From: a virus
DNA length: 64,000 bases
Reading direction: 5' to 3' (one strand)
IMG/VR virus record: IMGVR_UViG_3300042301_005314
Coordinates: 33,751-97,750 of that record
In this document: one piece after another, positions 22,702-57,156 of the stretch
How the letters are laid out: every line of letters starts with the position of its first letter
Position numbering within the stretch: the first letter of the stretch is position 1
Made by a program: the position numbers and the translations under genes
Notes under the pieces: generated by a model
The model's input: only the letters and a program-made list of their open reading frames with translations
Database searches by the model: none
What the model was told of the DNA's origin: nothing

Positions 22702-23110
22702 ATCAGAAGGAAAATTAGAAATATCCAATGGTGCAGTTCGTTTAAAAGTATCAATGGATTTTATACGATATTACAAATCATTAATTGATAAAGAATATCG
22801 TATATTTTCTAATTTCCCCGCGCATGGAAGCCATATCACGCTATTTCATCCTAAAATTCATGGTGTTTTAGATTCGTTTAAAGTTAAATTTATTAAAAAG
22901 TTTTATATGGATAATAAAATACCTTTTGAATATAATCCATATATTATACAAGGAGGACATACTAAAAACTTCCGAAATTGGTATTTAAATGTAAAAAGTG
23001 TTCAATTAAACGAAATTGTTAATTACTTAGGTGCAAGTGTCGGTCACGGTTTGCATTTAACTATTTGCAATACAAAAGGAGGAGTTCGTCCTTATATTTG
23101 GCTTAAATAA
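22685..23110 (+). CDS. 2H phosphoesterase, possibly Acb1-like anti-CBASS
   Basis: 141 residues from the ATG at 22685 (an upstream TTG is less likely). Two H-x-T motifs: GSHITLF (H50, T52) and GLHLTICN (H124, T126), about 74 residues apart, plus a Trp three residues from the C terminus. This size, spacing and terminal Trp resemble T4 gp57B/Acb1, which cleaves the cyclic nucleotides of CBASS immunity. I do not see a clear counterpart of every Acb1 active-site residue. It overlaps the SLOG gene and converges on a second 2H gene. Confidence 0.65.
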   Translation: MNYFLKSEGKLEISNGAVRLKVSMDFIRYYKSLIDKEYRIFSNFPAHGSHITLFHPKIHGVLDSFKVKFIKKFYMDNKIPFEYNPYIIQGGHTKNFRNWYLNVKSVQLNEIVNYLGASVGHGLHLTICNTKGGVRPYIWLK

Positions 23111-23642
23111 CTGTTTTAAACGTCTCATTACCGACATTATTGGAAAACACAAACCTATTACTGGTAAATGTTTTTCCAATAATGTCGGTTTTTATTTTGG
23201 TATATTGTTCTCCTTTGCCGGGAAGAAGATATCCAATAGTAGAGTGAGGATGATACCTTGGATAGCTATCCGTTGCATCAAAATTATTAGTTATAATATC
23301 GTTTAATTCCATTAATGATTTTGATTTTACATCAAATTTCAAAACATCGTATGCTTTATTCCTAAACAATGAAATATTAGTTAATGAAAAAGTAATTGGT
23401 TCAAATTTCAACTTTTTTTCAAAAAAACTGAAATTTTGATCATGTAATCCATACTTGACGGTAATATGCGGTTTTTGCTCTAACCCATGTCTCGGTGTTA
23501 AATCATAAACATCGCAGGGACATATTTTTTCTTGTATTTTCTGAAAGTCCGGAAGAAGAAACCCTAAGTCTAACATTAAACATGCATAAGGTCTTGGAGT
23601 TGTATTTTCAATAAACAATTGGTAAAATTCTGTAAATTTCAT
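23103..23642 (-). CDS. 2H phosphoesterase with capsid-targeting-like N terminus
   Basis: 179 residues. H-x-T motifs at H59-T61 (QKPHITVKYGL) and H133-T135 (HPHSTIGYL) define the 2H fold (LigT/cyclic phosphodiesterase). The first 13 residues, MKFTEFYQLFIEN, match a motif shared with the adjacent lysozyme and other proteins here and resemble T4 capsid-targeting peptides. It overlaps the lysozyme gene by 4 nt and is co-transcribed from its late-type box. Its 3' end contains an 18-bp inverted repeat that can terminate transcription from the opposite strand. Confidence 0.75.
   Translation of the reverse strand: MKFTEFYQLFIENTTPRPYACLMLDLGFLLPDFQKIQEKICPCDVYDLTPRHGLEQKPHITVKYGLHDQNFSFFEKKLKFEPITFSLTNISLFRNKAYDVLKFDVKSKSLMELNDIITNNFDATDSYPRYHPHSTIGYLLPGKGEQYTKIKTDIIGKTFTSNRFVFSNNVGNETFKTVI
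23130..23195 (+). terminator. Terminator for plus strand embedded in minus-strand CDS
   Basis: 18-bp perfect inverted repeat (23130-23147 with 23172-23189, 24-nt loop) followed by TTTTTATTTT. It lies entirely inside the convergent 2H coding sequence. Confidence 0.75.
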
Positions 23643-24577
23643 TTGTAAGTGTTTTTATTAACATCTAAGGAGTAATTAGGATGAAGCGCATTTTCTATTT
23701 CGCCCGCATTTCGTTTCATACGTAATGCAATACCATATCCTTTTTGTTTAGGGTCTGAATATTTCTTATATTCACGACTGTTAAGGTATTCTTTTGCAGC
23801 AGCTTTTAAATACACTCTTGCTACTCTGTGTTCACCCTTGAAGTATGCATCCATTGCCTTCTTAATGAGCTTTTTGGCCGTGACTGATCCTGCCAGATCA
23901 CCTCGGAAAAACCCGTCCAGAATCGCCACCTTGAGCGATAATGGATATTCGTCAAATCCTAAAAACTGTTTCCGGACAGTTATTAATTTTTTCATCAAAT
24001 CTTTTTTGAATATTTCTACTGCTCTAGCTTTAGATATTTCTACTTTAACCAGTTTTTTATTTTTTGTTAACACCTCATCTGGTTTAAATGTGCCGTCTTT
24101 AAGATCCGAAGGTATTATTAAATGACCTATTCCAATTGTATTATATCCTTTATTATCTGGATAACTTTTTGTATGAATTCCTATTCCTTGAATTTCATGC
24201 TTCATAATATACTGCATTGCAGTGTCTATGAAATTTTTATACCGACTATATTCATCAACTGATGACTTATTCACTAATGTCGTTGTGACTGGAGCAATTG
24301 GTTGCTGATTAAATGAGTTTTTAGTTTTGTATAAATTTTGCAATTTTGTTACAAAATCTGGATCTTTTAACTTTTGATCAACTTCTGTTTTAATTTCTTG
24401 AAATTTCTGTGGATTTTCTGCCAATTTCGCCACCTTCATTTCTACATCACTTGGAACACTCCATGTTATTCCTGCAATTGCCAGCATTCCGATTTTTCTT
24501 AAAAAATCCTTTACTCCTTCTTCTACAACAATATCTCGGTGTTCAACTACTAAATGGAACAGTTCATCAAATTTCAT
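23639..24577 (-). CDS. GH24 lysozyme with capsid-targeting-like N terminus
   Basis: 312 residues. The C-terminal domain is a T4-lysozyme-type muramidase: E128 (KHEIQG), D141 and T147 in SYPDNKGYNTIGIGHL, with D-to-T spacing identical to T4 lysozyme and a four-residue longer E-to-D loop. It hydrolyses peptidoglycan glycan strands. The first 13 residues (MKFDELFHLVVEH) carry the capsid-targeting-like motif, followed by a hydrophobic stretch at about 29-40. AATAAATA lies 5 nt before the ATG. I infer a virion-associated rather than free lysis enzyme. Confidence 0.82.
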   Translation of the reverse strand: MKFDELFHLVVEHRDIVVEEGVKDFLRKIGMLAIAGITWSVPSDVEMKVAKLAENPQKFQEIKTEVDQKLKDPDFVTKLQNLYKTKNSFNQQPIAPVTTTLVNKSSVDEYSRYKNFIDTAMQYIMKHEIQGIGIHTKSYPDNKGYNTIGIGHLIIPSDLKDGTFKPDEVLTKNKKLVKVEISKARAVEIFKKDLMKKLITVRKQFLGFDEYPLSLKVAILDGFFRGDLAGSVTAKKLIKKAMDAYFKGEHRVARVYLKAAAKEYLNSREYKKYSDPKQKGYGIALRMKRNAGEIENALHPNYSLDVNKNTYK

Positions 24578-30834: not shown

Positions 30835-31509
30835 TCAAAAAGTTCCCGGACCAGTTGAATCAACTTCACTTCCTAGCAAGCCGCGTGTATCTCGACCAAA
30901 TTCTTGCTTCATTAATCGAAATACTTCTTTTATATTTTTCTCATTTATATCTGAAATATTAAGATTAAAATTGCTACTTCCTCGTAGCAGACTATTCAAT
31001 ATAATTCTCGTCCAATAAACTCTTTTACCATTGTCTAGTTTTTGTTCTTCAGGCAAATCTGAATTCATACTTTTAATTTTCTCAATAATACTTTGCCCTT
31101 TAAATTCTGGTTGTTCCGTCCATTTTGAACTAACTCCTTCATAACGATCCATTGCCCATTCTACAAATCCTAAAATAGGAAGTATTTTTTTAGTTTTTTC
31201 AAAATAATCAGGAATTTTTTCAAAAGGAATTAACTGATCTCCGACTTTCATTTTCAAGTTATGAACATCTTTACTGGAAGTATTAAAGTAAATTGCGCGA
31301 ACTGCAAGTTTAGCAAGTTCTAATTCTTCTGGAGGAACGATTTCAGCAGGGGCTAATTCTTCTGGGGGCATTTCACCTTCTGGAGGAACACCCTCGTCTG
31401 GAGGCGATTCTTGTGTGTTAGCTGGCGCTTCCTGATTTTGTAATTGACCTTCTTCTGGATTTTCTGCTTCCAGAAATAATTTAGAAATATATAAATCAAA
31501 ATTAGACAT
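30835..31509 (-). CDS. Capsid-targeting-like N terminus, Pro/Glu-rich protein
   Basis: 224 residues. MSNFDLYISKLFLEAE carries the shared N-terminal motif with a Leu-x-Glu/Ala junction that fits T4 prohead-protease cleavage. Residues 17-60 are almost entirely Glu, Pro and Gln (low complexity, probably disordered). The remaining 160 residues form a helical domain of unknown family. It overlaps the next upstream gene by 8 nt. Likely a head-internal or scaffold-related protein, by inference. Confidence 0.65.
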   Translation of the reverse strand: MSNFDLYISKLFLEAENPEEGQLQNQEAPANTQESPPDEGVPPEGEMPPEELAPAEIVPPEELELAKLAVRAIYFNTSSKDVHNLKMKVGDQLIPFEKIPDYFEKTKKILPILGFVEWAMDRYEGVSSKWTEQPEFKGQSIIEKIKSMNSDLPEEQKLDNGKRVYWTRIILNSLLRGSSNFNLNISDINEKNIKEVFRLMKQEFGRDTRGLLGSEVDSTGPGTF

Positions 31510-31918
31510 TAATTGGTCCTCCTAAGTTTGCTTGTTGGTTTGTTCTATTCTGGAAATATTTTTGAAGAGCAGGAGTTTTCTGAATTTTCATCATTAAATC
31601 ATTTCGCTCTTGTGGTGGAGTTTTTGGATCTAACATCATGTTATCATAGTGTGCTGCTACGGCATTTTGGAATTCCGGCATTTTCATTTCACGATCCCAA
31701 TCTGTAGATTGATTTTTGAAATATGCACCAACATCAAGTGCAGAATTGTTTTTGTTAGCAGAATTAGATTGTGAGGATGTTGTTGAACGATTCACGGTTG
31801 TTGAAGATGAATTATTATTCTGGGTAACTGCTGGACCTCTATTGGTCAAACCTCCTTGTCCCATAGTGCCTAAACCTTCTTCCATTATTTTTTTAACATA
31901 CGAATCAAACTGTGTCAT
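31502..31918 (-). CDS. Capsid-targeting-like N terminus, Asn/Ser/Thr-rich protein
   Basis: 138 residues. MTQFDSYVKKIMEEG carries the motif and an Ile-x-Glu/Glu-Gly cleavage-like site. Residues about 30-60 are a Ser/Asn/Thr low-complexity linker. The C-terminal part (MPEFQNAVAAHYDNMM..., PALQKYFQNRTNQQ) is helical. It follows a perfect TATAAATA late box by 5 nt and is coupled to the next protein. Probably a packaged structural protein; function unknown. Confidence 0.65.
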   Translation of the reverse strand: MTQFDSYVKKIMEEGLGTMGQGGLTNRGPAVTQNNNSSSTTVNRSTTSSQSNSANKNNSALDVGAYFKNQSTDWDREMKMPEFQNAVAAHYDNMMLDPKTPPQERNDLMMKIQKTPALQKYFQNRTNQQANLGGPINV

Positions 31919-31931: not shown

Positions 31932-31957
31932 TTAAATGAATTGCGCTTTCTTAAAAT

Positions 31958-34150
31958 TTAGACTATATTATTTTTCATTTCCCAAAATAATTTAAATTTA
32001 GGTTTTTTTAAAAAAGTTTTCCAATTCGAACTCTCTTCTAACGAACTTTGTTTTATTATTTCTTTTATTTTTTCTGAATCTATTATTTTTTCAATCTCTT
32101 TTTGATTTTCTAATTTTTTATATTCGTTATATATATCTTTCAAATCAGGAGACACTAATAATTCTTGTAAATCATGTTGGTCTAATCCTTTATGACTGTA
32201 AAATACATTAATATATGATTTTTCTATGTCATCTTTTGCATGAGGAATTACTACAAAAAATATGTCGGCAGATTTAATCGCTAATTTTTTAATATAATCT
32301 TCGTTTATATTTCTGGAATAAAAATTTTTATCATCATCTTTATAAACTAATAATGATGATAATTTCGAACTATCTGGTTCAGCACTTTTCAAATTAAATA
32401 AAAAATCCAATTTATCGGTTGCTAAACTTTTTGTTAATTTTGGTAAAGATTCATAAATTCTGTCAAATATATAATCATTTATTTTCAATTTTATATTTCT
32501 TAATTTTTCTAATTTACCTCTTACATTTTCATATGACATATCAAATTCATATTTTCCCAATTCTATTCCATGCCAACTATAAATCCCATTTATGATATTC
32601 ATTTCTTCAATCATTTGAGATGCTGAAATTTCATTATCATTAATAAATGGGACTTCAAACAAATCGAATAAATTTTCTGTAATTTTCAGAGGCAAAATAT
32701 GCTGATTTTTTATTTTATAATTTGTTGTTAAATTTCCTGTTAAAACATTGATTACTTTTTGAGAAATTGCTGCACATTTATCATAAAACCTAGAAAAATT
32801 AAAATTCTCTGCTTCCTCCTCATCTAATAAATTTTCATAATATAACGGAAAATTTGCTACTACATTAAAATGATAATTTCCCCTAAAATCGTTTAAACTG
32901 ATGCGTATTCTTTCATCATATTTTTTGATATTTTGAAATTTTTCTTGTATTTTTGCCATATATTCCTCATTTTTGTTATTTTGGACTAAAAAATCATTTA
33001 TAACTTTTGGAAATTTAATTTTTACTTCAATATCTGTTCTTCCCATTGTTATATCTAAAAATTCATCATTTGAAGATAAGTCATACTCTTCATCTGTTAA
33101 TCTGCTCCATACTTCATTTAAAATATCATCATTTATATTTTCTCTAATATCATCTAAAAGTTGTTCCAATCTGTCATCATCTTCTTCTGGTCCAAATTCA
33201 CTTCTCAATTCATCATAATCACTTTTTTTTGTTACGTACTGTATATTTTTTCCCCAAATCTTTTTGATATTTTCTTTAACATCATGTCCGCTATCTTCAT
33301 AATTACCTCCTCTTAAAGTTAATCCATTATCCCAATTAAAATCTGAAACATCTTGTTTTTTTGCCCAAGTAGTTACTTGTTGTATGAATAAACTATTATA
33401 CCTCTTATTATAAGGAGCATAGACTTTTAAATTAGGAACTGCTAATTCATTTCCTGCTGAATCATTTACCAATCTTATTCTAATTCTTGCTTGTGGATTA
33501 ATTCCTTTTAGATTTCTATCATTATCTTTAAAAATTTCTTGTTTTTGTAAATTCTCATCTTTATGCAATTCATAAGTTTGATATTCTTCTTCTGAAACTA
33601 AATATGCAATTGCTCCTAAATTTCTTGAATCAGATAATGCACAATAAAAATAGTTATTTCCTGGAGTATGACAACTTTTCCAATCAAAATCACTCATTCT
33701 AGCCACATCAATCGGAGAACGAGAATAAATCACATAATCCGCAGTTGGATTTGCTTGTTCATATTGTTTTTGTAGATTTGTAGTTTTTAATAAATCATCA
33801 AGTGCTTTTATATTAATTTCCAATTTACGTTTTTGTTCTTCGTTTTCTATTGAAGAAAGTGTTTTTGTTAATGTTTCTTTTCTTTTAGTTAAAATTTTTC
33901 CCAAACGATTTGGATTTTTCTTTTCAATATCAGAAATTTTATATCCTGCCCATTTCTCAAAATCTATTTCGTATTGATCTCCTAATAAATCTTTTAATAA
34001 TTTTTGATAACTTGATTTGCCGTATAAAGGTTCAATAGTTCTTAGTTTATTTCCAAAAATTGCATCAAATGGGACTTTATTACTAGTTTTCATATAATCA
34101 AGATAATATGATGCTATTTCAGAAAATAAATTACTAGATTGTTTTTTCAT
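31958..34150 (-). CDS. Large conserved-looking unknown protein, 730 aa
   Basis: 730 residues, acidic and helical. The most striking segment is MSDFDWKSCHTPGNNY at about 152-167, followed by a beta-rich stretch (GAIAYLVSEEEY, ARIRIRLVND) and FNWDNGLTLRGGNYED; this looks like a folded enzymatic or binding domain of about 200 residues, but I cannot name it. The last 400 residues are long charged helices and beta segments. A degenerate late box (GATAAGTA) is 5 nt before the ATG. Its N terminus lacks a clear capsid-targeting motif. Confidence 0.6.
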   Translation of the reverse strand: MKKQSSNLFSEIASYYLDYMKTSNKVPFDAIFGNKLRTIEPLYGKSSYQKLLKDLLGDQYEIDFEKWAGYKISDIEKKNPNRLGKILTKRKETLTKTLSSIENEEQKRKLEINIKALDDLLKTTNLQKQYEQANPTADYVIYSRSPIDVARMSDFDWKSCHTPGNNYFYCALSDSRNLGAIAYLVSEEEYQTYELHKDENLQKQEIFKDNDRNLKGINPQARIRIRLVNDSAGNELAVPNLKVYAPYNKRYNSLFIQQVTTWAKKQDVSDFNWDNGLTLRGGNYEDSGHDVKENIKKIWGKNIQYVTKKSDYDELRSEFGPEEDDDRLEQLLDDIRENINDDILNEVWSRLTDEEYDLSSNDEFLDITMGRTDIEVKIKFPKVINDFLVQNNKNEEYMAKIQEKFQNIKKYDERIRISLNDFRGNYHFNVVANFPLYYENLLDEEEAENFNFSRFYDKCAAISQKVINVLTGNLTTNYKIKNQHILPLKITENLFDLFEVPFINDNEISASQMIEEMNIINGIYSWHGIELGKYEFDMSYENVRGKLEKLRNIKLKINDYIFDRIYESLPKLTKSLATDKLDFLFNLKSAEPDSSKLSSLLVYKDDDKNFYSRNINEDYIKKLAIKSADIFFVVIPHAKDDIEKSYINVFYSHKGLDQHDLQELLVSPDLKDIYNEYKKLENQKEIEKIIDSEKIKEIIKQSSLEESSNWKTFLKKPKFKLFWEMKNNIV

Positions 34151-40204: not shown

Positions 40205-40657
40205 TTAAGAAATTTCTTTAAATATAGAGTTTGTTATATTTTTATATTTTTCTTTTAATGCTTCTGGACATTTTCCTATTCTTACATGAATTATTCCATT
40301 ATGATACTCATTATTCAATAATACGGCATGTCTTAATTGCTCCAAAGTTTCCATATAAGCCATAGTCCATTTAGATTCACACAAGTGCAAAATAGTTCTT
40401 TTGAAATTTTCTGGTCCATGCAGGGCAAGTTCATTTTGTAAATCCTTAGATGAACCGTAATATTTTTTCCAATCCGATTCCTTTTTCACTTTTCTATTTC
40501 TAGTTTTTCCCTTTAATGGTTTAAGTGTTAAGTTGGACCAGAATTGCTTCTTCCCCAAATAGTATCTTTTCTCTCCGGGAAGTGCATTAGTTCGTTCGAT
40601 ACAATAAACAAAACCGAAATGTTCGTCTATATTTTCAGGTACGTTTTCCCAATCCAT
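40205..40657 (-). CDS. GIY-YIG-like nuclease
   Basis: 150 residues. GFVYCIERTN... then RYYLGKKQFW at about 15-41 is the divergent GIY-YIG beta hairpin typical of T4-like cyanophage proteins. Arg/Lys-rich loop (KTRNRKVKKESDWKKYYGSSKDL) and Glu in MAYMETLEQLRHAVL at about 109-123 complete the fold. Probably a free-standing nuclease. GTAAATA 6 nt before the ATG suggests late expression. Confidence 0.7.
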   Translation of the reverse strand: MDWENVPENIDEHFGFVYCIERTNALPGEKRYYLGKKQFWSNLTLKPLKGKTRNRKVKKESDWKKYYGSSKDLQNELALHGPENFKRTILHLCESKWTMAYMETLEQLRHAVLLNNEYHNGIIHVRIGKCPEALKEKYKNITNSIFKEIS

Positions 40658-40663
40658 AAAGGC

Positions 40664-40670
40664 TATTTAC
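40664..40670 (-). promoter_or_regulatory. Late-type box GTAAATA
   Basis: Minus strand, 6 nt before the ATG at 40657. Confidence 0.5.
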
Positions 40671-40687
40671 CCCTCATATAAGAGAAG

Positions 40688-41878
40688 TCAAAATTCGTCA
40701 ATTTCATCATATTCTGTTATTTCCAAAACATGGTATTCAGATTCGTCTATATTTGGAAAATCATCGAACTGTGAAGCAGTTGGATCTACAATAATGCCTT
40801 CAACTTCTAACCAAGTATGCCCATCGTCTTTATAAAATCCATGATGAATTTCTATATCCTCTACTCCATTTTCTTTTAATTGTTTTGCTAAAAAACTGCT
40901 CGCATCTTGGCAACCCATTTCACAACATGGCATTGTTCCCGGCTTTACATATTTTGAGATAACATTTTGTGCAGTATTTGATAAAGTTTCTAATGGATAA
41001 GAAAACCAAAAATTATTAATCACTCTGGTACTTTTCGGTTTGGATGCTTCGCTATAAATTTTCCGTTTTTTGCTTTTAATTTTACGTTTATTTTTGATTT
41101 TTCCTTTTCTTGAAATAGTTCCTAAAATTGCAGGAGTTCTGGCATCACTGGTGTCATAAGGTCCATCATTTCCCAAAACACTTGCATCTGTCATTTCTTC
41201 TATCTTTTCGCTATAATAATCATTTTCTGTTTCGTCATAATCATATATTTCTACAATAGAGTCATCAAAAATTACAAAATTATAAGAAACTTTTTCGTCT
41301 TTTGGTTTGTTTCGATCTAATTGAGTAATATACTTCAAGCCCTTTATTCCAGCATTCCAAAATAACTCAGACGCTTTTTTTGCACTACTATGATCATTTT
41401 GTACAAATTCGTATATATTCTTTCCAGTTGCTTTTTGAAATTCGATTAAATCGCTTTCATCAAAGGCAGTAATGGTTTTATCTGGAAAACCTTTTGAATC
41501 AACTACCTGTCCTTTAGTTCCATCACCATAAGTTTTCCATTTATATGATCTTATATGTTCTACTAGACGTTTTAACTTATCTTTTACATATGCCGACTGC
41601 TCTTCAAATGAGAGGTCATAGTTTAACAATTCATCTTCTTTTGCATCTATATCTACAGTGTAATTATAGATTTTTTCATGCCCTCGGAATTTGAAAGAAT
41701 TTGTATAGTGTTCTGCCACTTTTGGATTGTCAGTAAAGTATAATCCATAGCCATATCTTTGATTCCCTTCTCCAGTTCCAATATATTTTAAACTAAATTT
41801 ATCAGAAATGAAATTCGGACTAGAGTGAAAAACTCTTTCCAATAAGTTGTCAAAAAAGTTGTCAAAATTTTCTGTCAT
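40688..41878 (-). CDS. ADP-ribosyltransferase-like protein with capsid-targeting-like N terminus
   Basis: 396 residues. Residues 1-15 (MTENFDNFFDNLLER) carry the shared packaging-like motif with a Leu-x-Glu site. About 16-200 match the ART domain of phage polyvalent proteins: FHSSP with H18, IGTGEGNQRYGYGLYF at 33-48 and SYNFVIFDDSIVEIYD near the end. ARTs transfer ADP-ribose from NAD+ to host proteins. A basic linker (GKIKNKRKIKSKKRK) is followed by a C-terminal domain with ASSFLAKQLKENGVED and GHTWLEVEGIIVDPTASQ, which looks like a papain/transglutaminase-type fold. Late TAAATA box 7 nt upstream. Confidence 0.75.
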   Translation of the reverse strand: MTENFDNFFDNLLERVFHSSPNFISDKFSLKYIGTGEGNQRYGYGLYFTDNPKVAEHYTNSFKFRGHEKIYNYTVDIDAKEDELLNYDLSFEEQSAYVKDKLKRLVEHIRSYKWKTYGDGTKGQVVDSKGFPDKTITAFDESDLIEFQKATGKNIYEFVQNDHSSAKKASELFWNAGIKGLKYITQLDRNKPKDEKVSYNFVIFDDSIVEIYDYDETENDYYSEKIEEMTDASVLGNDGPYDTSDARTPAILGTISRKGKIKNKRKIKSKKRKIYSEASKPKSTRVINNFWFSYPLETLSNTAQNVISKYVKPGTMPCCEMGCQDASSFLAKQLKENGVEDIEIHHGFYKDDGHTWLEVEGIIVDPTASQFDDFPNIDESEYHVLEITEYDEIDEF

Positions 41879-41892: not shown

Positions 41893-41921
41893 TTGAAAAT
41901 ATACTTTAAAGGATGTATCTT
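41893..41921 (+). promoter_or_regulatory. Promoter for 41928 gene and helicase operon
   Basis: TTGAAA, 17-bp spacer, TATCTT, then 3-6 nt to tandem ATGs at 41925 and 41928. Confidence 0.65.
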
Positions 41922-41927
41922 AAAATG

Positions 41928-42332
41928 ATGCAAAAAGATCCTAATGTTTTATTAGAAGAGTATTCCAAAGAAATAGAAATGGATACTTCTATTGATGTAA
42001 CAAATATTTTAGAAAAACAATTTTCCAGCCCGAATACAAAGCATAAATGGCTTTTTAGATTAACAAAGGCAAAAAGAGAATTGTTAAATTTAATAAATGA
42101 GAAAGATAATTTTTTAAATAACGTAATGAATAGAGATAATCCTTTGAAATTGTCAAAAGCTGTTATTTCTAATAAATTAGATAGTCATGAAGAATATAAA
42201 GCGTTACAAAGAAAGATAAAAGATCAAGAAATTTTAGTAGAATATTTAGACAGTAATGTGAATAAAGTGTTTAGTCAAATGAGTTTTGATTTTAAAAATC
42301 TTATTGAGTTAATGAAAATGGAACAATTATAA
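41928..42332 (+). CDS. Hypothetical helical protein, 134 aa
   Basis: I start at the ATG at 41928 (MQKDPNVLLE), just at the predicted transcript start; 41913 and 41925 are alternative in-frame ATGs. Mostly charged helix, unrecognised, immediately before uvsW with the stop adjacent to its GTG. Some T4-like genomes have small replication accessory proteins near here, but no motif supports a name. Confidence 0.55.
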   Translation: MQKDPNVLLEEYSKEIEMDTSIDVTNILEKQFSSPNTKHKWLFRLTKAKRELLNLINEKDNFLNNVMNRDNPLKLSKAVISNKLDSHEEYKALQRKIKDQEILVEYLDSNVNKVFSQMSFDFKNLIELMKMEQL

Positions 42333-43760
42333 GTGGTTGAGAAAATTAAAATAGATTTTCAGAAAAAAGGAGGAGTTTTAACATGCTCCAAAGATATTCT
42401 GAAATTAGTAAGAGAAAAGTTTTCTGTAAAGAATCCTAGTTTTCATAGTCGTCGTTTTGCACCTCGTTTGTATGCAATAACACCGTCAGGAGCATTTCAA
42501 GTAGGATTATGGAATGAGATTGAAAACTATATTCGTAGTTTAAATATACCAATTAGCATAGAGTTAACAGATGAATTTAAAAAACAATTTCTTCCAAAAA
42601 CAGGAATAGAAGAAATATCTAAAATCGACTCTTTCAACTATTATGATTATCAGGAAGATGCTATAAAACAATTTGTAGAAAATGGAAGAGGAATTTCTCT
42701 GATTGCCACAGGTGGCGGAAAGGCTCTGTGTATAGCAGGATTAACTAAAACATTTTTAGATCATTATCCGAACTATAAAATATTAATAATAGTTCCCAAT
42801 GTTAGTTTGCTTAATCAGTTATATTATTCATTTATTGATGAATTTAGTATTAATGATGTTACTCGCTGGGGAGACGGCAAAACTCCTGATTTATCCCAAA
42901 ACATAATTATAGCTAATAATCAAATATTAATCGCAGATATAGATTATACATTATCGGTTGTAAAGGATTTTGATGTAATTATTGTTGATGAAGTTCATAC
43001 AATTAATGAAAAGAAAAATAAAATTAGTAAAGTAATTCATAATATTAAAACACCGTTTAAATTTGGATTAACTGGAACATTGCCGGATTCTATGATGGGT
43101 GCATGGAATGTTATTGGAAAAATAGGTCCGATAGTTTATGAAAAAAATTCATTTGAGCTTCGCAAGCAACAAACTATAACAGATGTTGAAATCAAAGTAG
43201 TAGTTTGTCAACACATTAAAAAACCAGTTCCTACCACAGTTTTTACGGAACCAACTGATGCATACATGTTTGAATATGATTATGTAATGAATTATGCACC
43301 TCGCAACAATGTTATTGCAAAAATTGCTAAAAAGTTAAATGGAAACACTCTTATTGTTGTAGATAGACTTCAATACATTAGTTCAATACATGATTGTTTG
43401 AAAAATTGTGGAAAAAAGATTTACATTATTACAGGAAATACTCCAACGGACGAAAGAACCGTTATTCAGAATACAATGGATGCAGAAGACAACATAATTT
43501 GTATTGCAATGAGTAAATGCTTTTCCACTGGTATTTCTATTAAGAATTTACATTATGCTATTTTTGCATATATGGGAAAAGGAGGAGTAAAAACCGTTCA
43601 AACAATTGGTAGAACTGTTCGAAAACATTCATCCAAAGAAAAAGCTGTTATTTTTGATATTTCAGATGACTTAAATTATTCAGTTCGTCATTTAAAAGAA
43701 CGTTTGAAAATTTATAAAGATCAAAAGATAACATACACTCTTACAAAAATAAAAATTTAA
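42333..43760 (+). CDS. uvsW: UvsW-like SF2 DNA helicase
   Basis: 475 residues; T4 UvsW is about 500. GTG start. The N-terminal small domain precedes YYDYQEDAI (Q motif), then ATGGGKALCIAG at about 124-135 in place of Walker A (the usual Ser/Thr after Lys is Ala), VIIVDEVHTI (DExH) at about 216-225, FGLTGTLPD at about 244-252 and QTIGRTVRKHSSKEK (motif VI) at about 426-440. UvsW unwinds R-loops and branched DNA and drives late-stage recombination-dependent replication. Operon with gp55 and gp47. Confidence 0.88.
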   Translation: MVEKIKIDFQKKGGVLTCSKDILKLVREKFSVKNPSFHSRRFAPRLYAITPSGAFQVGLWNEIENYIRSLNIPISIELTDEFKKQFLPKTGIEEISKIDSFNYYDYQEDAIKQFVENGRGISLIATGGGKALCIAGLTKTFLDHYPNYKILIIVPNVSLLNQLYYSFIDEFSINDVTRWGDGKTPDLSQNIIIANNQILIADIDYTLSVVKDFDVIIVDEVHTINEKKNKISKVIHNIKTPFKFGLTGTLPDSMMGAWNVIGKIGPIVYEKNSFELRKQQTITDVEIKVVVCQHIKKPVPTTVFTEPTDAYMFEYDYVMNYAPRNNVIAKIAKKLNGNTLIVVDRLQYISSIHDCLKNCGKKIYIITGNTPTDERTVIQNTMDAEDNIICIAMSKCFSTGISIKNLHYAIFAYMGKGGVKTVQTIGRTVRKHSSKEKAVIFDISDDLNYSVRHLKERLKIYKDQKITYTLTKIKI

Positions 43761-55708: not shown

Positions 55709-55739
55709 AAAAAAGGTCGCTGAAATAGCGACCTTTTTT
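55709..55739. terminator. Bidirectional terminator
   Basis: 13-bp stem (AAAAAAGGTCGCT/AGCGACCTTTTTT, 5-nt loop) between convergent genes. Confidence 0.9.
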
Positions 55740-57156
55740 ATTTTATACTTTTAAGATTTCGTGTTGGATTTTCTGGAAAAGTTTTTTTACGAATAATCTT
55801 TAAATCATTTAATGCATTTCTACAACGAGTAACATCATCATAAAGATAATGATCTATTCTTTGTTTTTTCTGATTTTCTTTGAGTCTTTTTTCAGAATTA
55901 TCTTTTTGGGCATTAATCTCTTCGAATATTTTATCGAACAATTCATTCACTAACGTTTGGGATGATTTTCGATAATCTATTTCAATCGCAGAATTGAAAT
56001 GGTAGGAATTGTATGCATTTGAGTATTTGCTCTTATTTTTTAAAGATTTCTTTATATTAATTGTTAATGTATCATTATAATCACTTCCAAAAATATTAAA
56101 ATAAATTTTACTTTCTTCATGAGCATAATTCCTAACAATCATAAATCCTTCATAATCATTTTTTTCTAATCTTAATCCATATAAATGTGCAATGTCCTTT
56201 ATTATATTATTAGTTTTTTGTTCGACTTCCGGGTTTGGTCCAAGTTTTTGTTTTAATGCATTTATAAGATTGTTCAAATCATGAAAACAAGCTCCATCTC
56301 CCCGACCAATGTTACTAAAATCTTTAGTAAATTTTAAACGATGCTCATGATTTACAATGACAGTTATATCAAAATTATTTGCATCAAAATATAGATAAAA
56401 ATAATTATTTTTATGACTAAAAACGATTTTTTTATTGCTATCATATCTTGATTTTTCTTCGGTAATTTTAAAATTTGGAAATTCTTTTTTGAAAATTTTG
56501 ATTATATTTTGTGTTGGATTTTGGTTAATAACATCCACCACTATAAATGCATCTTTTTTCAAATAAACTATTTGAATTGGTTCATTACTATGAACTATTG
56601 CAAGTCCCGGATCATATATTGCATTATAAGGTGTTTTATTAAAAAGAATGTTCCAAGAGTTATTTTTTGATAAATTGTTCTTATGGCGATAAGATTCTAT
56701 ACTTGCCCAAAATTTATGTCCCGGCGTTAATTTATCATCTGATACTGACCGATGATATAAATCTGGATGATCATAATATTCATCAGAGATTCCCATAGAA
56801 TAGAGAATTTTTCTAGCTTCTTCCTCAGACATATTTAAATTTAATATATTTGCTTTATTACTAGGTTTTATTATATATGCATATTTTTTATTAGCAAACA
56901 TTGAATTTTTAAGCAATAGGTTATTTAATACATATTCTTTTGGAAAAACATAAGTTCCCAATGGATCATGATGACCCGGTGTTAATCTAGTGGCAAGAAA
57001 TGGAGTGGTGTCGTTAGGTTCTCGGTTTTTTGGAATTCCTCCTGAAAAATGAACACCAATTAATGGATCAGAACTATTCTTTAATATATCGAATAATTTT
57101 GGATTAAATTCTTCCGAACTTTCATGAATTAAATTTAATAAGTGGTCAAATGTCAT
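55738..57156 (-). CDS. ADP-ribosyltransferase-like protein with capsid-targeting-like N terminus
   Basis: 472 residues. MTFDHLLNLIHESSEE has the shared motif and an Ile-x-Glu/Ser site. About 30-205 shows a diverged ART-like layout: IGVHFSGGIPKN (His), GTYVFPKEYV, then YAYIIKPSNKANILNLN, and NAIYDPGLAIVHSNEPIQIVYLKKDAF, comparable in order to the ART domain at 41.8 kb. The remainder (about 210-472) is an unrecognised alpha/beta and coiled region, ending very basic. Perfect TATAAATA 5 nt before the ATG. The ART assignment is tentative. Confidence 0.6.
   Translation of the reverse strand: MTFDHLLNLIHESSEEFNPKLFDILKNSSDPLIGVHFSGGIPKNREPNDTTPFLATRLTPGHHDPLGTYVFPKEYVLNNLLLKNSMFANKKYAYIIKPSNKANILNLNMSEEEARKILYSMGISDEYYDHPDLYHRSVSDDKLTPGHKFWASIESYRHKNNLSKNNSWNILFNKTPYNAIYDPGLAIVHSNEPIQIVYLKKDAFIVVDVINQNPTQNIIKIFKKEFPNFKITEEKSRYDSNKKIVFSHKNNYFYLYFDANNFDITVIVNHEHRLKFTKDFSNIGRGDGACFHDLNNLINALKQKLGPNPEVEQKTNNIIKDIAHLYGLRLEKNDYEGFMIVRNYAHEESKIYFNIFGSDYNDTLTINIKKSLKNKSKYSNAYNSYHFNSAIEIDYRKSSQTLVNELFDKIFEEINAQKDNSEKRLKENQKKQRIDHYLYDDVTRCRNALNDLKIIRKKTFPENPTRNLKSIK

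What the first reader, a model, noticed from the sequence alone, without database searches (positions are those of the whole stretch)
40688..41878. Packaged ART fused to a papain/transglutaminase-like C-terminal region
The protein has a packaging-like tag, an ART domain (H18, YGYGLYF, late acidic motif) and, after a Lys/Arg-rich linker, a C-terminal region with a conserved-looking Cys (near ASSFLAKQ) and His (GHTWLEV) and Asp (IIVDPTASQ), in the order Cys-His-Asp of papain-fold enzymes. T4 Alt is a packaged ART injected into the host; this would be an analogue with a second activity.
Basis: partly seen in the sequence, partly recalled or inferred. Interest (0 to 1): 0.62.

Follow-up and report, generated by a model that had tools for sequence, protein, structure and literature searches.

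The report
Packaged phage ART with swappable parts
[quoted passage not shown] near-identical viruses carry a different version at the same spot, so the slot seems to swap its cargo.

Summary
The ORF is real: minus strand, 40688-41878, 396 aa, found identical in three other assemblies. It has four parts. (1) A capsid-targeting-like N-terminal tag ending in LLE. (2) An ADP-ribosyltransferase domain of the phage polyvalent-protein type (H18, Y47 and D205 invariant in 17 relatives), not the R-S-E Alt type. (3) A conserved 'VLGNDG-YDTSD-R-P' segment with a Lys/Arg-rich tail. (4) A C-terminal transglutaminase/papain-like domain with invariant C323, H354 and D365; its profile matches the phage isopeptidase PeiW. 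The ART sits inside that carrier and the Cys-His-Asp domain behind it. A near-identical phage carries a 49%-identical ART-only allele, with a mosaic break covering exactly this gene and its SegE-type neighbour. The transglutaminase-like domain is fused to an ART independently in Tunturiibacter phage Tunturi_5 and, by motif, in one IMG/VR phage. Best reading: an injected, head-packaged, modular ART effector with a thiol-enzyme partner. Packaging, both activities and the targets are inferred, not shown. New variant of a known kind.

The parts
40688..41878 (-). Whole ORF, 396 aa: tag + ART + carrier segment + transglutaminase-like domain
   Evidence: identical in three independent IMG/VR contigs
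41837..41878 (-). Residues 1-14 MTENFDNFFDNLLE: capsid-targeting-like tag ending in an [LI]xE prohead-protease-type site
   Evidence: aromatic spacing i, i+3 as in the T4 IPIII CTS (positions 4 and 7) and L/I-X-E rule (PMC9026906)
41228..41836 (-). Residues 15-217: ADP-ribosyltransferase domain, polyvalent (Tox-ART-HYD2 / PF18760-like) type
41825..41827 (-). Codon of H18, ART strand 1, invariant 17/17
41738..41740 (-). Codon of Y47, ART strand 2 (YGxGLYF), invariant 17/17
41264..41266 (-). Codon of D205, end of the NFVIF strand, invariant 17/17
41054..41203 (-). Residues 226-275: IEE site + ASVLGNDGPYDTSDARTPAILGTISRKG segment and Lys/Arg-rich tail; with the tag it forms a free-standing 58-64 aa protein in relatives
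40691..41053 (-). Residues 276-396: transglutaminase/papain-like domain
40910..40912 (-). Codon of C323, predicted nucleophile, invariant 9/9
40817..40819 (-). Codon of H354 (GHTWLEV), invariant 9/9
40784..40786 (-). Codon of D365 (VDPTASQF), invariant 9/9
40678..41080 (-). Stretch absent from the near-identical phage L020/L154: the transglutaminase-like domain is present/absent between alleles
41080..41208 (-). 129-bp stretch, 91.5% identical between the two alleles although both sides are diverged; encodes the carrier segment
40175..41940 (.). Mosaic block replaced between otherwise ~99% identical phages (SegE-like gene and target gene)
40205..40657 (-). Adjacent SegE-type GIY-YIG gene (PF19835, E 7.6e-30), about 50% identical between the two alleles
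41913..43760 (+). UvsY-like and UvsW-like genes that mark the conserved locus on the other side
   Evidence: synteny in all contigs that carry the carrier segment; UvsY/UvsW names from sequence reading

Best explanation
The gene encodes a head-packaged, injected effector of a T4-type phage, built by grafting cargo onto a small basic capsid-targeted carrier protein. Proposed steps: (1) the N-terminal tag brings the protein into the prohead core (inferred); (2) a gp21-type prohead protease cuts at LLE14 and probably at IEE228, freeing the ART from the tag and from the basic YDTSD segment (inferred); (3) on infection the ART enters the cell with the DNA and ADP-ribosylates host macromolecules, doing by a different ART family what T4 Alt does (ART fold and H-Y-D site shown by sequence and model; activity and target inferred); (4) the C-terminal transglutaminase-like thiol domain (C323-H354-D365) is a second effector activity, peptidase, deamidase or cross-linker, or processes the fusion (fold family supported; activity inferred). 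The slot diversifies by exchange of whole cargo parts between related phages, possibly helped by the adjacent SegE-type endonuclease (exchange pattern shown; driver inferred).
For: ART: PHROG 873 'head and packaging' E 3e-8; homology to an ART-PolyVal protein in the head-gene cluster of Sulfitobacter phage phiGT1; H18/Y47/D205 invariant in 17 relatives; Foldseek top matches cyanophage A4 pre-ejectosome 9k3a (probability 0.99), MbcT (0.97), then PARPs and ParT. Tag: 6/81 ORFs against 0.23 expected; three tagged ARTs (window, L020, L044) group together (96/94). Carrier: 58-64 aa free-standing protein at the same syntenic place in other phages; one of these contigs, G006, has T4 gp23 (E 5e-90) and T4-type terminase and sheath. 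[LI]xE precedes the YDTSD segment in every form. C-terminal domain: invariant C/H/D, Pfam Transglut_core3 and Transglut_core hits in the 42-45% identical relative L035, PDB profile match to PeiW E 2.2e-4 and to an arylamine acetyltransferase E 0.009 with Cys aligned in both and His in PeiW, model pLDDT 87.8 and pTM 0.82. ART partnership: Tunturi_5 gp225 is ART / transglutaminase-like / ART next to the portal gene; L126 fuses the domain to a YRGM...SWS...EKE protein (motif only). Exchange: sharp mosaic between near-identical phages.
Against: No gp21 homologue was found in any of these incomplete contigs. [LI]xE is a weak motif: 10 occur in the protein against 4.3 expected from composition. The tag is inferred from sequence only. 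Foldseek gives no significant PDB hit for the C-terminal model. The ART falls below the gathering score of its Pfam families. SegE-like genes are present in all relatives, so a role in the exchange is circumstantial.
Confidence: 0.6

Rival explanations
1. The C-terminal domain is a self-processing or maturation protease, not a host-directed effector: it trims the fusion so that the ART is released from the carrier, as proposed for the built-in peptidases of polyvalent proteins.
For: Polyvalent proteins use embedded peptidases to release domains (PMC5512222). The domain sits next to ARTs in different proteins and orders.
Against: The ART-only allele in L020 does without it. The same family is common as stand-alone 107-136 aa phage proteins with nothing to release. 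Two [LI]xE sites already flank the ART.
Confidence: 0.2
2. The protein is made and acts inside the infected cell (like T4 ModA/ModB) and is not packaged; the tag-like start is a coincidence or has another role.
For: No virion data and no prohead protease found. The perfect TATAAATA late-promoter motif is not found just upstream of this gene.
Against: Tag enrichment in the window; the same start on the small carrier protein and on independent cargo forms; ART relatives lie in head-gene clusters or resemble an ejection protein.
Confidence: 0.15
3. The C-terminal domain acts on the cell wall during entry, like the phage isopeptidase PeiW, rather than on host proteins.
For: PeiW is the best profile match among solved structures.
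Against: Only the superfamily core is shared (57 columns). Known PeiW substrates are pseudomurein of methanogens (PMC4592898), and there is no sign of such a host here. The partner domain is an intracellular-type ART.
Confidence: 0.08
4. The two alleles and the ART insertion are assembly artefacts.
For: All relatives come from metagenome assemblies.
Against: The window form is in four records (G000, L001-L003) and the ART-only form in two (G002, G003), each without breaks.
Confidence: 0.02

Closest known systems
ART-PolyVal (PF18760) / Tox-ART-HYD2 ARTs of phage polyvalent proteins (Iyer et al. 2017)
   Same: Homologous ART domain with H in strand 1, Y in strand 2 and D after the NFVxF strand; relatives lie in head-gene clusters
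   Different: Here it is a small protein with a T4-style capsid-targeting-like tag, inserted in a short carrier, not a large multidomain polyvalent protein; it scores below the Pfam cut-off
T4 Alt
   Same: Proposed biology: ART packaged in a T4-type head, cut by the prohead protease, injected
   Different: Different ART family (Alt is R-S-E, this is H-Y-D); no Alt homology; a second catalytic-looking domain
T4 internal proteins IPI-IPIII (CTS-tagged)
   Same: Short N-terminal tag with aromatic residues at spacing i, i+3, ending in [LI]xE; small basic packaged proteins; variable cargo
   Different: No sequence homology beyond the tag pattern; carries enzyme domains
Phage pseudomurein endoisopeptidase PeiW / transglutaminase-like superfamily (Transglut_core, YunG)
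   Same: Cys-His-Asp order, Cys at the helix start; profile match to PeiW E 2.2e-4
   Different: Much smaller domain; fused to ARTs; a distinct family with an HxWLEVxGxIVDPTAxQF signature; substrate unknown
SegE and other free-standing GIY-YIG endonucleases of T4
   Same: Adjacent gene belongs to PF19835; T4 segE lies next to uvsW and causes non-reciprocal exchange there (PMC2988022)
   Different: Here it flanks a packaged-type effector gene, and both are exchanged together; in L004 it is fused to a terminase fragment

Membership tests
Tox-ART-HYD2 / ART-PolyVal | His in strand 1, Tyr in strand 2, Asp in strand 5 (PMC5512222) | tested here: met
   H18 (strand 13-20), Y47 (strand 46-49), D205 (just after strand 199-203); all 17/17
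Tox-ART-HYD2 / ART-PolyVal | Sequence match above the PF18760 gathering score | tested here: not met
   Window protein: no PF18760 hit, DUF3990 at E 0.0024; relatives phiGT1_5 E 1e-6 (just under cut-off) and L044 E 6.7e-5. Described as a divergent relative, not a Pfam member
ADP-ribosyltransferase superfamily | ART fold | tested here: met
   Foldseek: 9k3a_B 0.99, MbcT 0.97, PARP and ParT chains
T4 Alt / Alt-VIP2 clade | R-S-E active site | tested here: not met
   H-Y-D instead; rule from PMC5512222
Transglutaminase/papain-like thiol enzymes | Conserved Cys, His, Asp in that order | tested here: met
   C323, H354, D365 invariant 9/9
Transglutaminase/papain-like thiol enzymes | Core fold: Cys at start of a helix, His and Asp on following strands | tested here: inconclusive
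   Secondary structure of a confident model agrees and PeiW profile match E 2.2e-4, but no significant Foldseek hit in PDB; geometry not measurable here
Transglutaminase/papain-like thiol enzymes | Thiol-dependent catalysis | not testable with these tools
   Needs an assay
CTS-tagged capsid internal proteins of T4-type phages | N-terminal tag with aromatic residues at spacing i, i+3 and an [LI]xE cut site | tested here: met
   F5, F8 and LLE14; enrichment 6/81 against 0.23; rule from PMC9026906
CTS-tagged capsid internal proteins of T4-type phages | Phage has T4-type head genes including the gp21 protease | tested here: inconclusive
   gp23 and T4-type terminase in relative G006; gp21 not found, contigs incomplete
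CTS-tagged capsid internal proteins of T4-type phages | Protein present in virions | not testable with these tools
   Needs proteomics
Genuine polyvalent protein | Large multidomain protein, injected with DNA, several enzymatic domains | tested here: inconclusive
   Two enzymatic-looking domains but only 396 aa and a T4-type carrier; injection not shown

The most novel reading that the evidence does not exclude
Some T4-type phages keep a dedicated, exchangeable cargo slot: a 58-64 aa capsid-targeted basic carrier with a fixed VLGNDG-YDTSD-R-P segment, between whose tag and segment unrelated effector domains are inserted, bounded by prohead-protease sites, with further domains added behind; whole cargo parts are exchanged between near-identical phages beside a SegE-type endonuclease, with the fixed segment as homology anchor. 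The ART + transglutaminase-like pair would be one load of this slot, and the transglutaminase-like family a recurrent partner of phage ARTs not described before.
Probability: 0.4. Interest if true: 0.75.

Novelty: new variant of a known kind. Interest (0 to 1): 0.58.

Why it matters
Head-packaged ARTs are known from T4 Alt and predicted in polyvalent proteins, but how phages acquire and exchange injected effectors is poorly documented. Here the empty carrier, two ART-loaded alleles and one loaded with an unrelated domain occur at the same locus, so the history can be read from sequence and the carrier can be tested as a natural delivery scaffold. The repeated joining of ARTs to one transglutaminase-like family points to an unstudied pair of activities; the paper on polyvalent proteins lists four peptidase superfamilies and this is not among them (PMC5512222).

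Tried and rejected
(a) Alt family: rejected on active-site residues. (b) Direct database naming of the C-terminal domain: Pfam, NCBIfam and PHROGs gave nothing strong for the window protein itself; only relatives and the profile against PDB did. (c) Foldseek with the C-terminal model: top PDB hit human NAT2, probability 0.47, E 0.53; top BFVD hit probability 0.98 to an oddly named Myoviridae protein, and a Caulobacter phage 'transglutaminase' at 0.44; kept as weak support only. (d) The YDTSD segment as a copy of the mature gp23 N-arm: in four of six forms the best local alignment falls in the same register (Y...D.R.P..L....RR), but scores reach only z = 0.8-3.5 against shuffles; kept as a lead, not a claim. 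(e) gp21 search by Pfam and by KVP40 gp21: empty, uninformative because contigs are incomplete. (f) More carrier family members: the profile scan of IMG/VR returned the same 15 contigs. (g) T4-type late promoter: TATAAATA lies directly upstream of tagged ORFs 31502-31918 and 55738-57156, but not of this gene.

Full report
WHAT IS THERE. The reported stretch holds one ORF on the minus strand, 396 aa; the plus strand is full of stops. The window is bases 33,751-97,750 of a 97,750-base virus record, and the same protein occurs, 100% identical, in three other IMG/VR contigs. Neighbouring genes are of T4 kind by sequence reading (UvsW-, UvsY-, SbcCD- and Dda-like).

ART DOMAIN (15-217). Pfam sees it weakly (DUF3990, E 0.0024), PHROGs as part of a 'head and packaging' family (phrog_873, E 3e-8). 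tblastn against annotated phages finds relatives in Sulfitobacter phage phiGT1, in a gene between a structural protein and the scaffold gene, and in Tunturiibacter phage Tunturi_5, next to a minor head protein. The phiGT1 protein hits PF18760 ART-PolyVal at E 1e-6. A profile pulled 80 IMG/VR loci. In 17 aligned relatives H18, Y47 and D205 are invariant; they lie in strand 1, strand 2 and just after the NFVxF strand of the model. That is the H-Y-D arrangement described for ARTs of polyvalent proteins, which the same paper separates from the R-S-E Alt/VIP2 clade (PMC5512222). Foldseek with the model places it with ART folds, first a cyanophage A4 pre-ejectosome chain (probability 0.99), then MbcT, PARPs and ParT. 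The match to a pre-ejectosome protein supports a virion role, but the paper was not in the library.

C-TERMINAL DOMAIN (276-396). tblastn finds Tunturi_5 gp225 and a stand-alone 124-aa protein of Alteromonas phage PT11-V19. Profiles added L035-L039, L125 and L126 from IMG/VR and L119 and L120 from bacterial genome contigs. Nine sequences share C323, G347, H354, W356, D365, T367, Q370 and F371 without exception. The relative L035 (42-45% identical) hits Transglut_core3 (E 1.5e-4) and Transglut_core (E 8.5e-4); L039 hits YunG (E 1.4e-4); all are below Pfam cut-offs. The family profile finds phage isopeptidase PeiW among PDB sequences (E 2.2e-4), with the Cys and His columns aligned, and an arylamine acetyltransferase (E 0.009); PeiW has the Cys-His-Asp triad of transglutaminases (PMC4592898). 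The AlphaFold model is confident (pLDDT 87.8, pTM 0.82): C323 starts a helix, H354 is on a strand and D365 is at the end of the next. Foldseek against PDB is not significant. I take membership of the superfamily as likely and catalysis as an inference.

TAG AND CARRIER. The start MTENFDNFFDNLLE fits the T4 capsid-targeting rule: aromatic residues at spacing i, i+3 and an L/I-X-E cut site (PMC9026906). The pattern is found at the start of 6 of 81 ORFs, against 0.23 in shuffles, though one of the six is a probably spurious 47-aa ORF. The unexpected point is a relative phage (L004) with the same gene order and no ART: there the ORF is MTENFDNFVAEILKEDGMAVAGVLGNDGAYDTSDTRTPNVLGPMQRRGSIKNRRKKRSR, 59 aa, which is the tag plus the counterpart of residues 226-272 of the window protein. 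Searches for the motif gave 15 contigs: the free form in L004, L011, L016, L018, L019, L022, L024 and L026; an ART-loaded form of 260 aa without the C-terminal domain (L020; L021 partial); a 217-aa form with an unrelated inserted domain (L017, L025); and the window form. All occupy the same place between UvsY/UvsW-like genes and a SegE-type gene. An [LI]xE stands just before the conserved segment in every form, and loaded forms have a second site, or for L020 a site-like FIE, at the end of the tag. The motif is weak, with 10 in this protein against 4.3 expected, so the two-cut model is plausible, not proven. L018's contig carries T4 gp23 (E 5e-90), T4-type terminase and sheath.

EXCHANGE. Contigs G002 and G003 are nearly the same phage as the window: the flanking genes are 95-100% identical in protein, most of them 99% or more. 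The target gene is 48.6% and the SegE-like gene 50% identical. At the DNA level identity is 100% up to about 40,170, about 55% to 40,600, 94% over 40,610-40,677, nothing over 40,678-41,080 (the C-terminal domain), 91.5% over 41,080-41,208 (the carrier segment), about 58% over the ART and tag, and 100% again from 41,950. Parts have been exchanged or lost around conserved anchors. T4 SegE lies between inh and uvsW, cuts uvsW and is responsible for non-reciprocal exchange between T-even phages (PMC2988022); a SegE role here is a reasonable but untested guess. A second such place is 31,937-34,145, where the window has a 730-aa ORF and L020 a tagged 703-aa ORF read through into the next tagged small protein.

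WHY TWO DOMAINS. In Tunturi_5 gp225, next to the portal gene, the transglutaminase-like domain lies between two ART-PolyVal domains. In L126 it is fused to a protein with R-S-E-like ART motifs (YRGM, SWS, EKE; motif reading only, no database hit). In L044's phage a tagged ART and an untagged, divergent relative of the domain are separate genes. In L125 a stand-alone copy shares its N-terminal 16 residues with both neighbours. So the pairing recurs, in different orders, which argues for a functional link.

MECHANISM AND CONFIDENCE. ART fold about 0.97; active ART about 0.85; head packaging about 0.75; transglutaminase-like fold about 0.85; active thiol enzyme about 0.7; release by the prohead protease about 0.5; target unknown. 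These are my estimates, not computed values. It works like T4 Alt but is not an Alt. The parts are of known kinds; the carrier architecture, the exchangeable cargo and the ART/transglutaminase-like pairing were not found in the papers searched, which cover open-access literature only.

Noticed in passing
window 23103-23642 (-): Tagged ORF (MKFTEFYQLFIE) is a 2H phosphoesterase with two HxT motifs; Pfam 2_5_RNA_ligase2 E 6e-8 and anti-CBASS Acb1 E 2e-4 (below cut-off). Possible packaged anti-CBASS enzyme.
   Followed up: partly
window 31937-34145 and L020:1778-3889 (-): Second place replaced between the near-identical phages: 730-aa ORF in the window, tagged 703-aa ORF in L020 that reads through into the next small tagged protein (MTQFDSYVKKIM...).
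   Followed up: partly
window 55738-57156 (-), 31502-31918 (-): Tagged ORFs with a T4-type late promoter motif TATAAATA directly upstream; functions unknown.
   Followed up: no
window 23639-24577 (-): Lysozyme-like ORF also starts with the tag pattern (MKFDELFHLVVE), as if a cell-wall enzyme were packaged in the head.
   Followed up: no
L004:8214-9374 and L011:1059-2219: SegE-type GIY-YIG domain fused to an N-terminal fragment of T4-type terminase (shown for L004; L011 by similarity).
   Followed up: no
L132:1318-1605 (G008:36158-36265): Short ORF of 95 aa holding a 36-aa piece 58% identical to the mature gp23 N-terminal region, away from any gp23 gene.
   Followed up: no
L134:14826-16379 and carrier segment: Carrier segment Y-x3-D-x-R-x-P-x2-L-x4-RR lines up in register with the N-arm of mature gp23 of the related phage; suggestive only, z up to 3.5.
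   Followed up: partly
L125:277-3908: Three consecutive genes share an N-terminal M+L+GI.DSG[LI]RRIAQ peptide: a KptA-like/ParB-like protein, the transglutaminase-like protein and an unknown; looks like another tag system in a different phage.
   Followed up: partly
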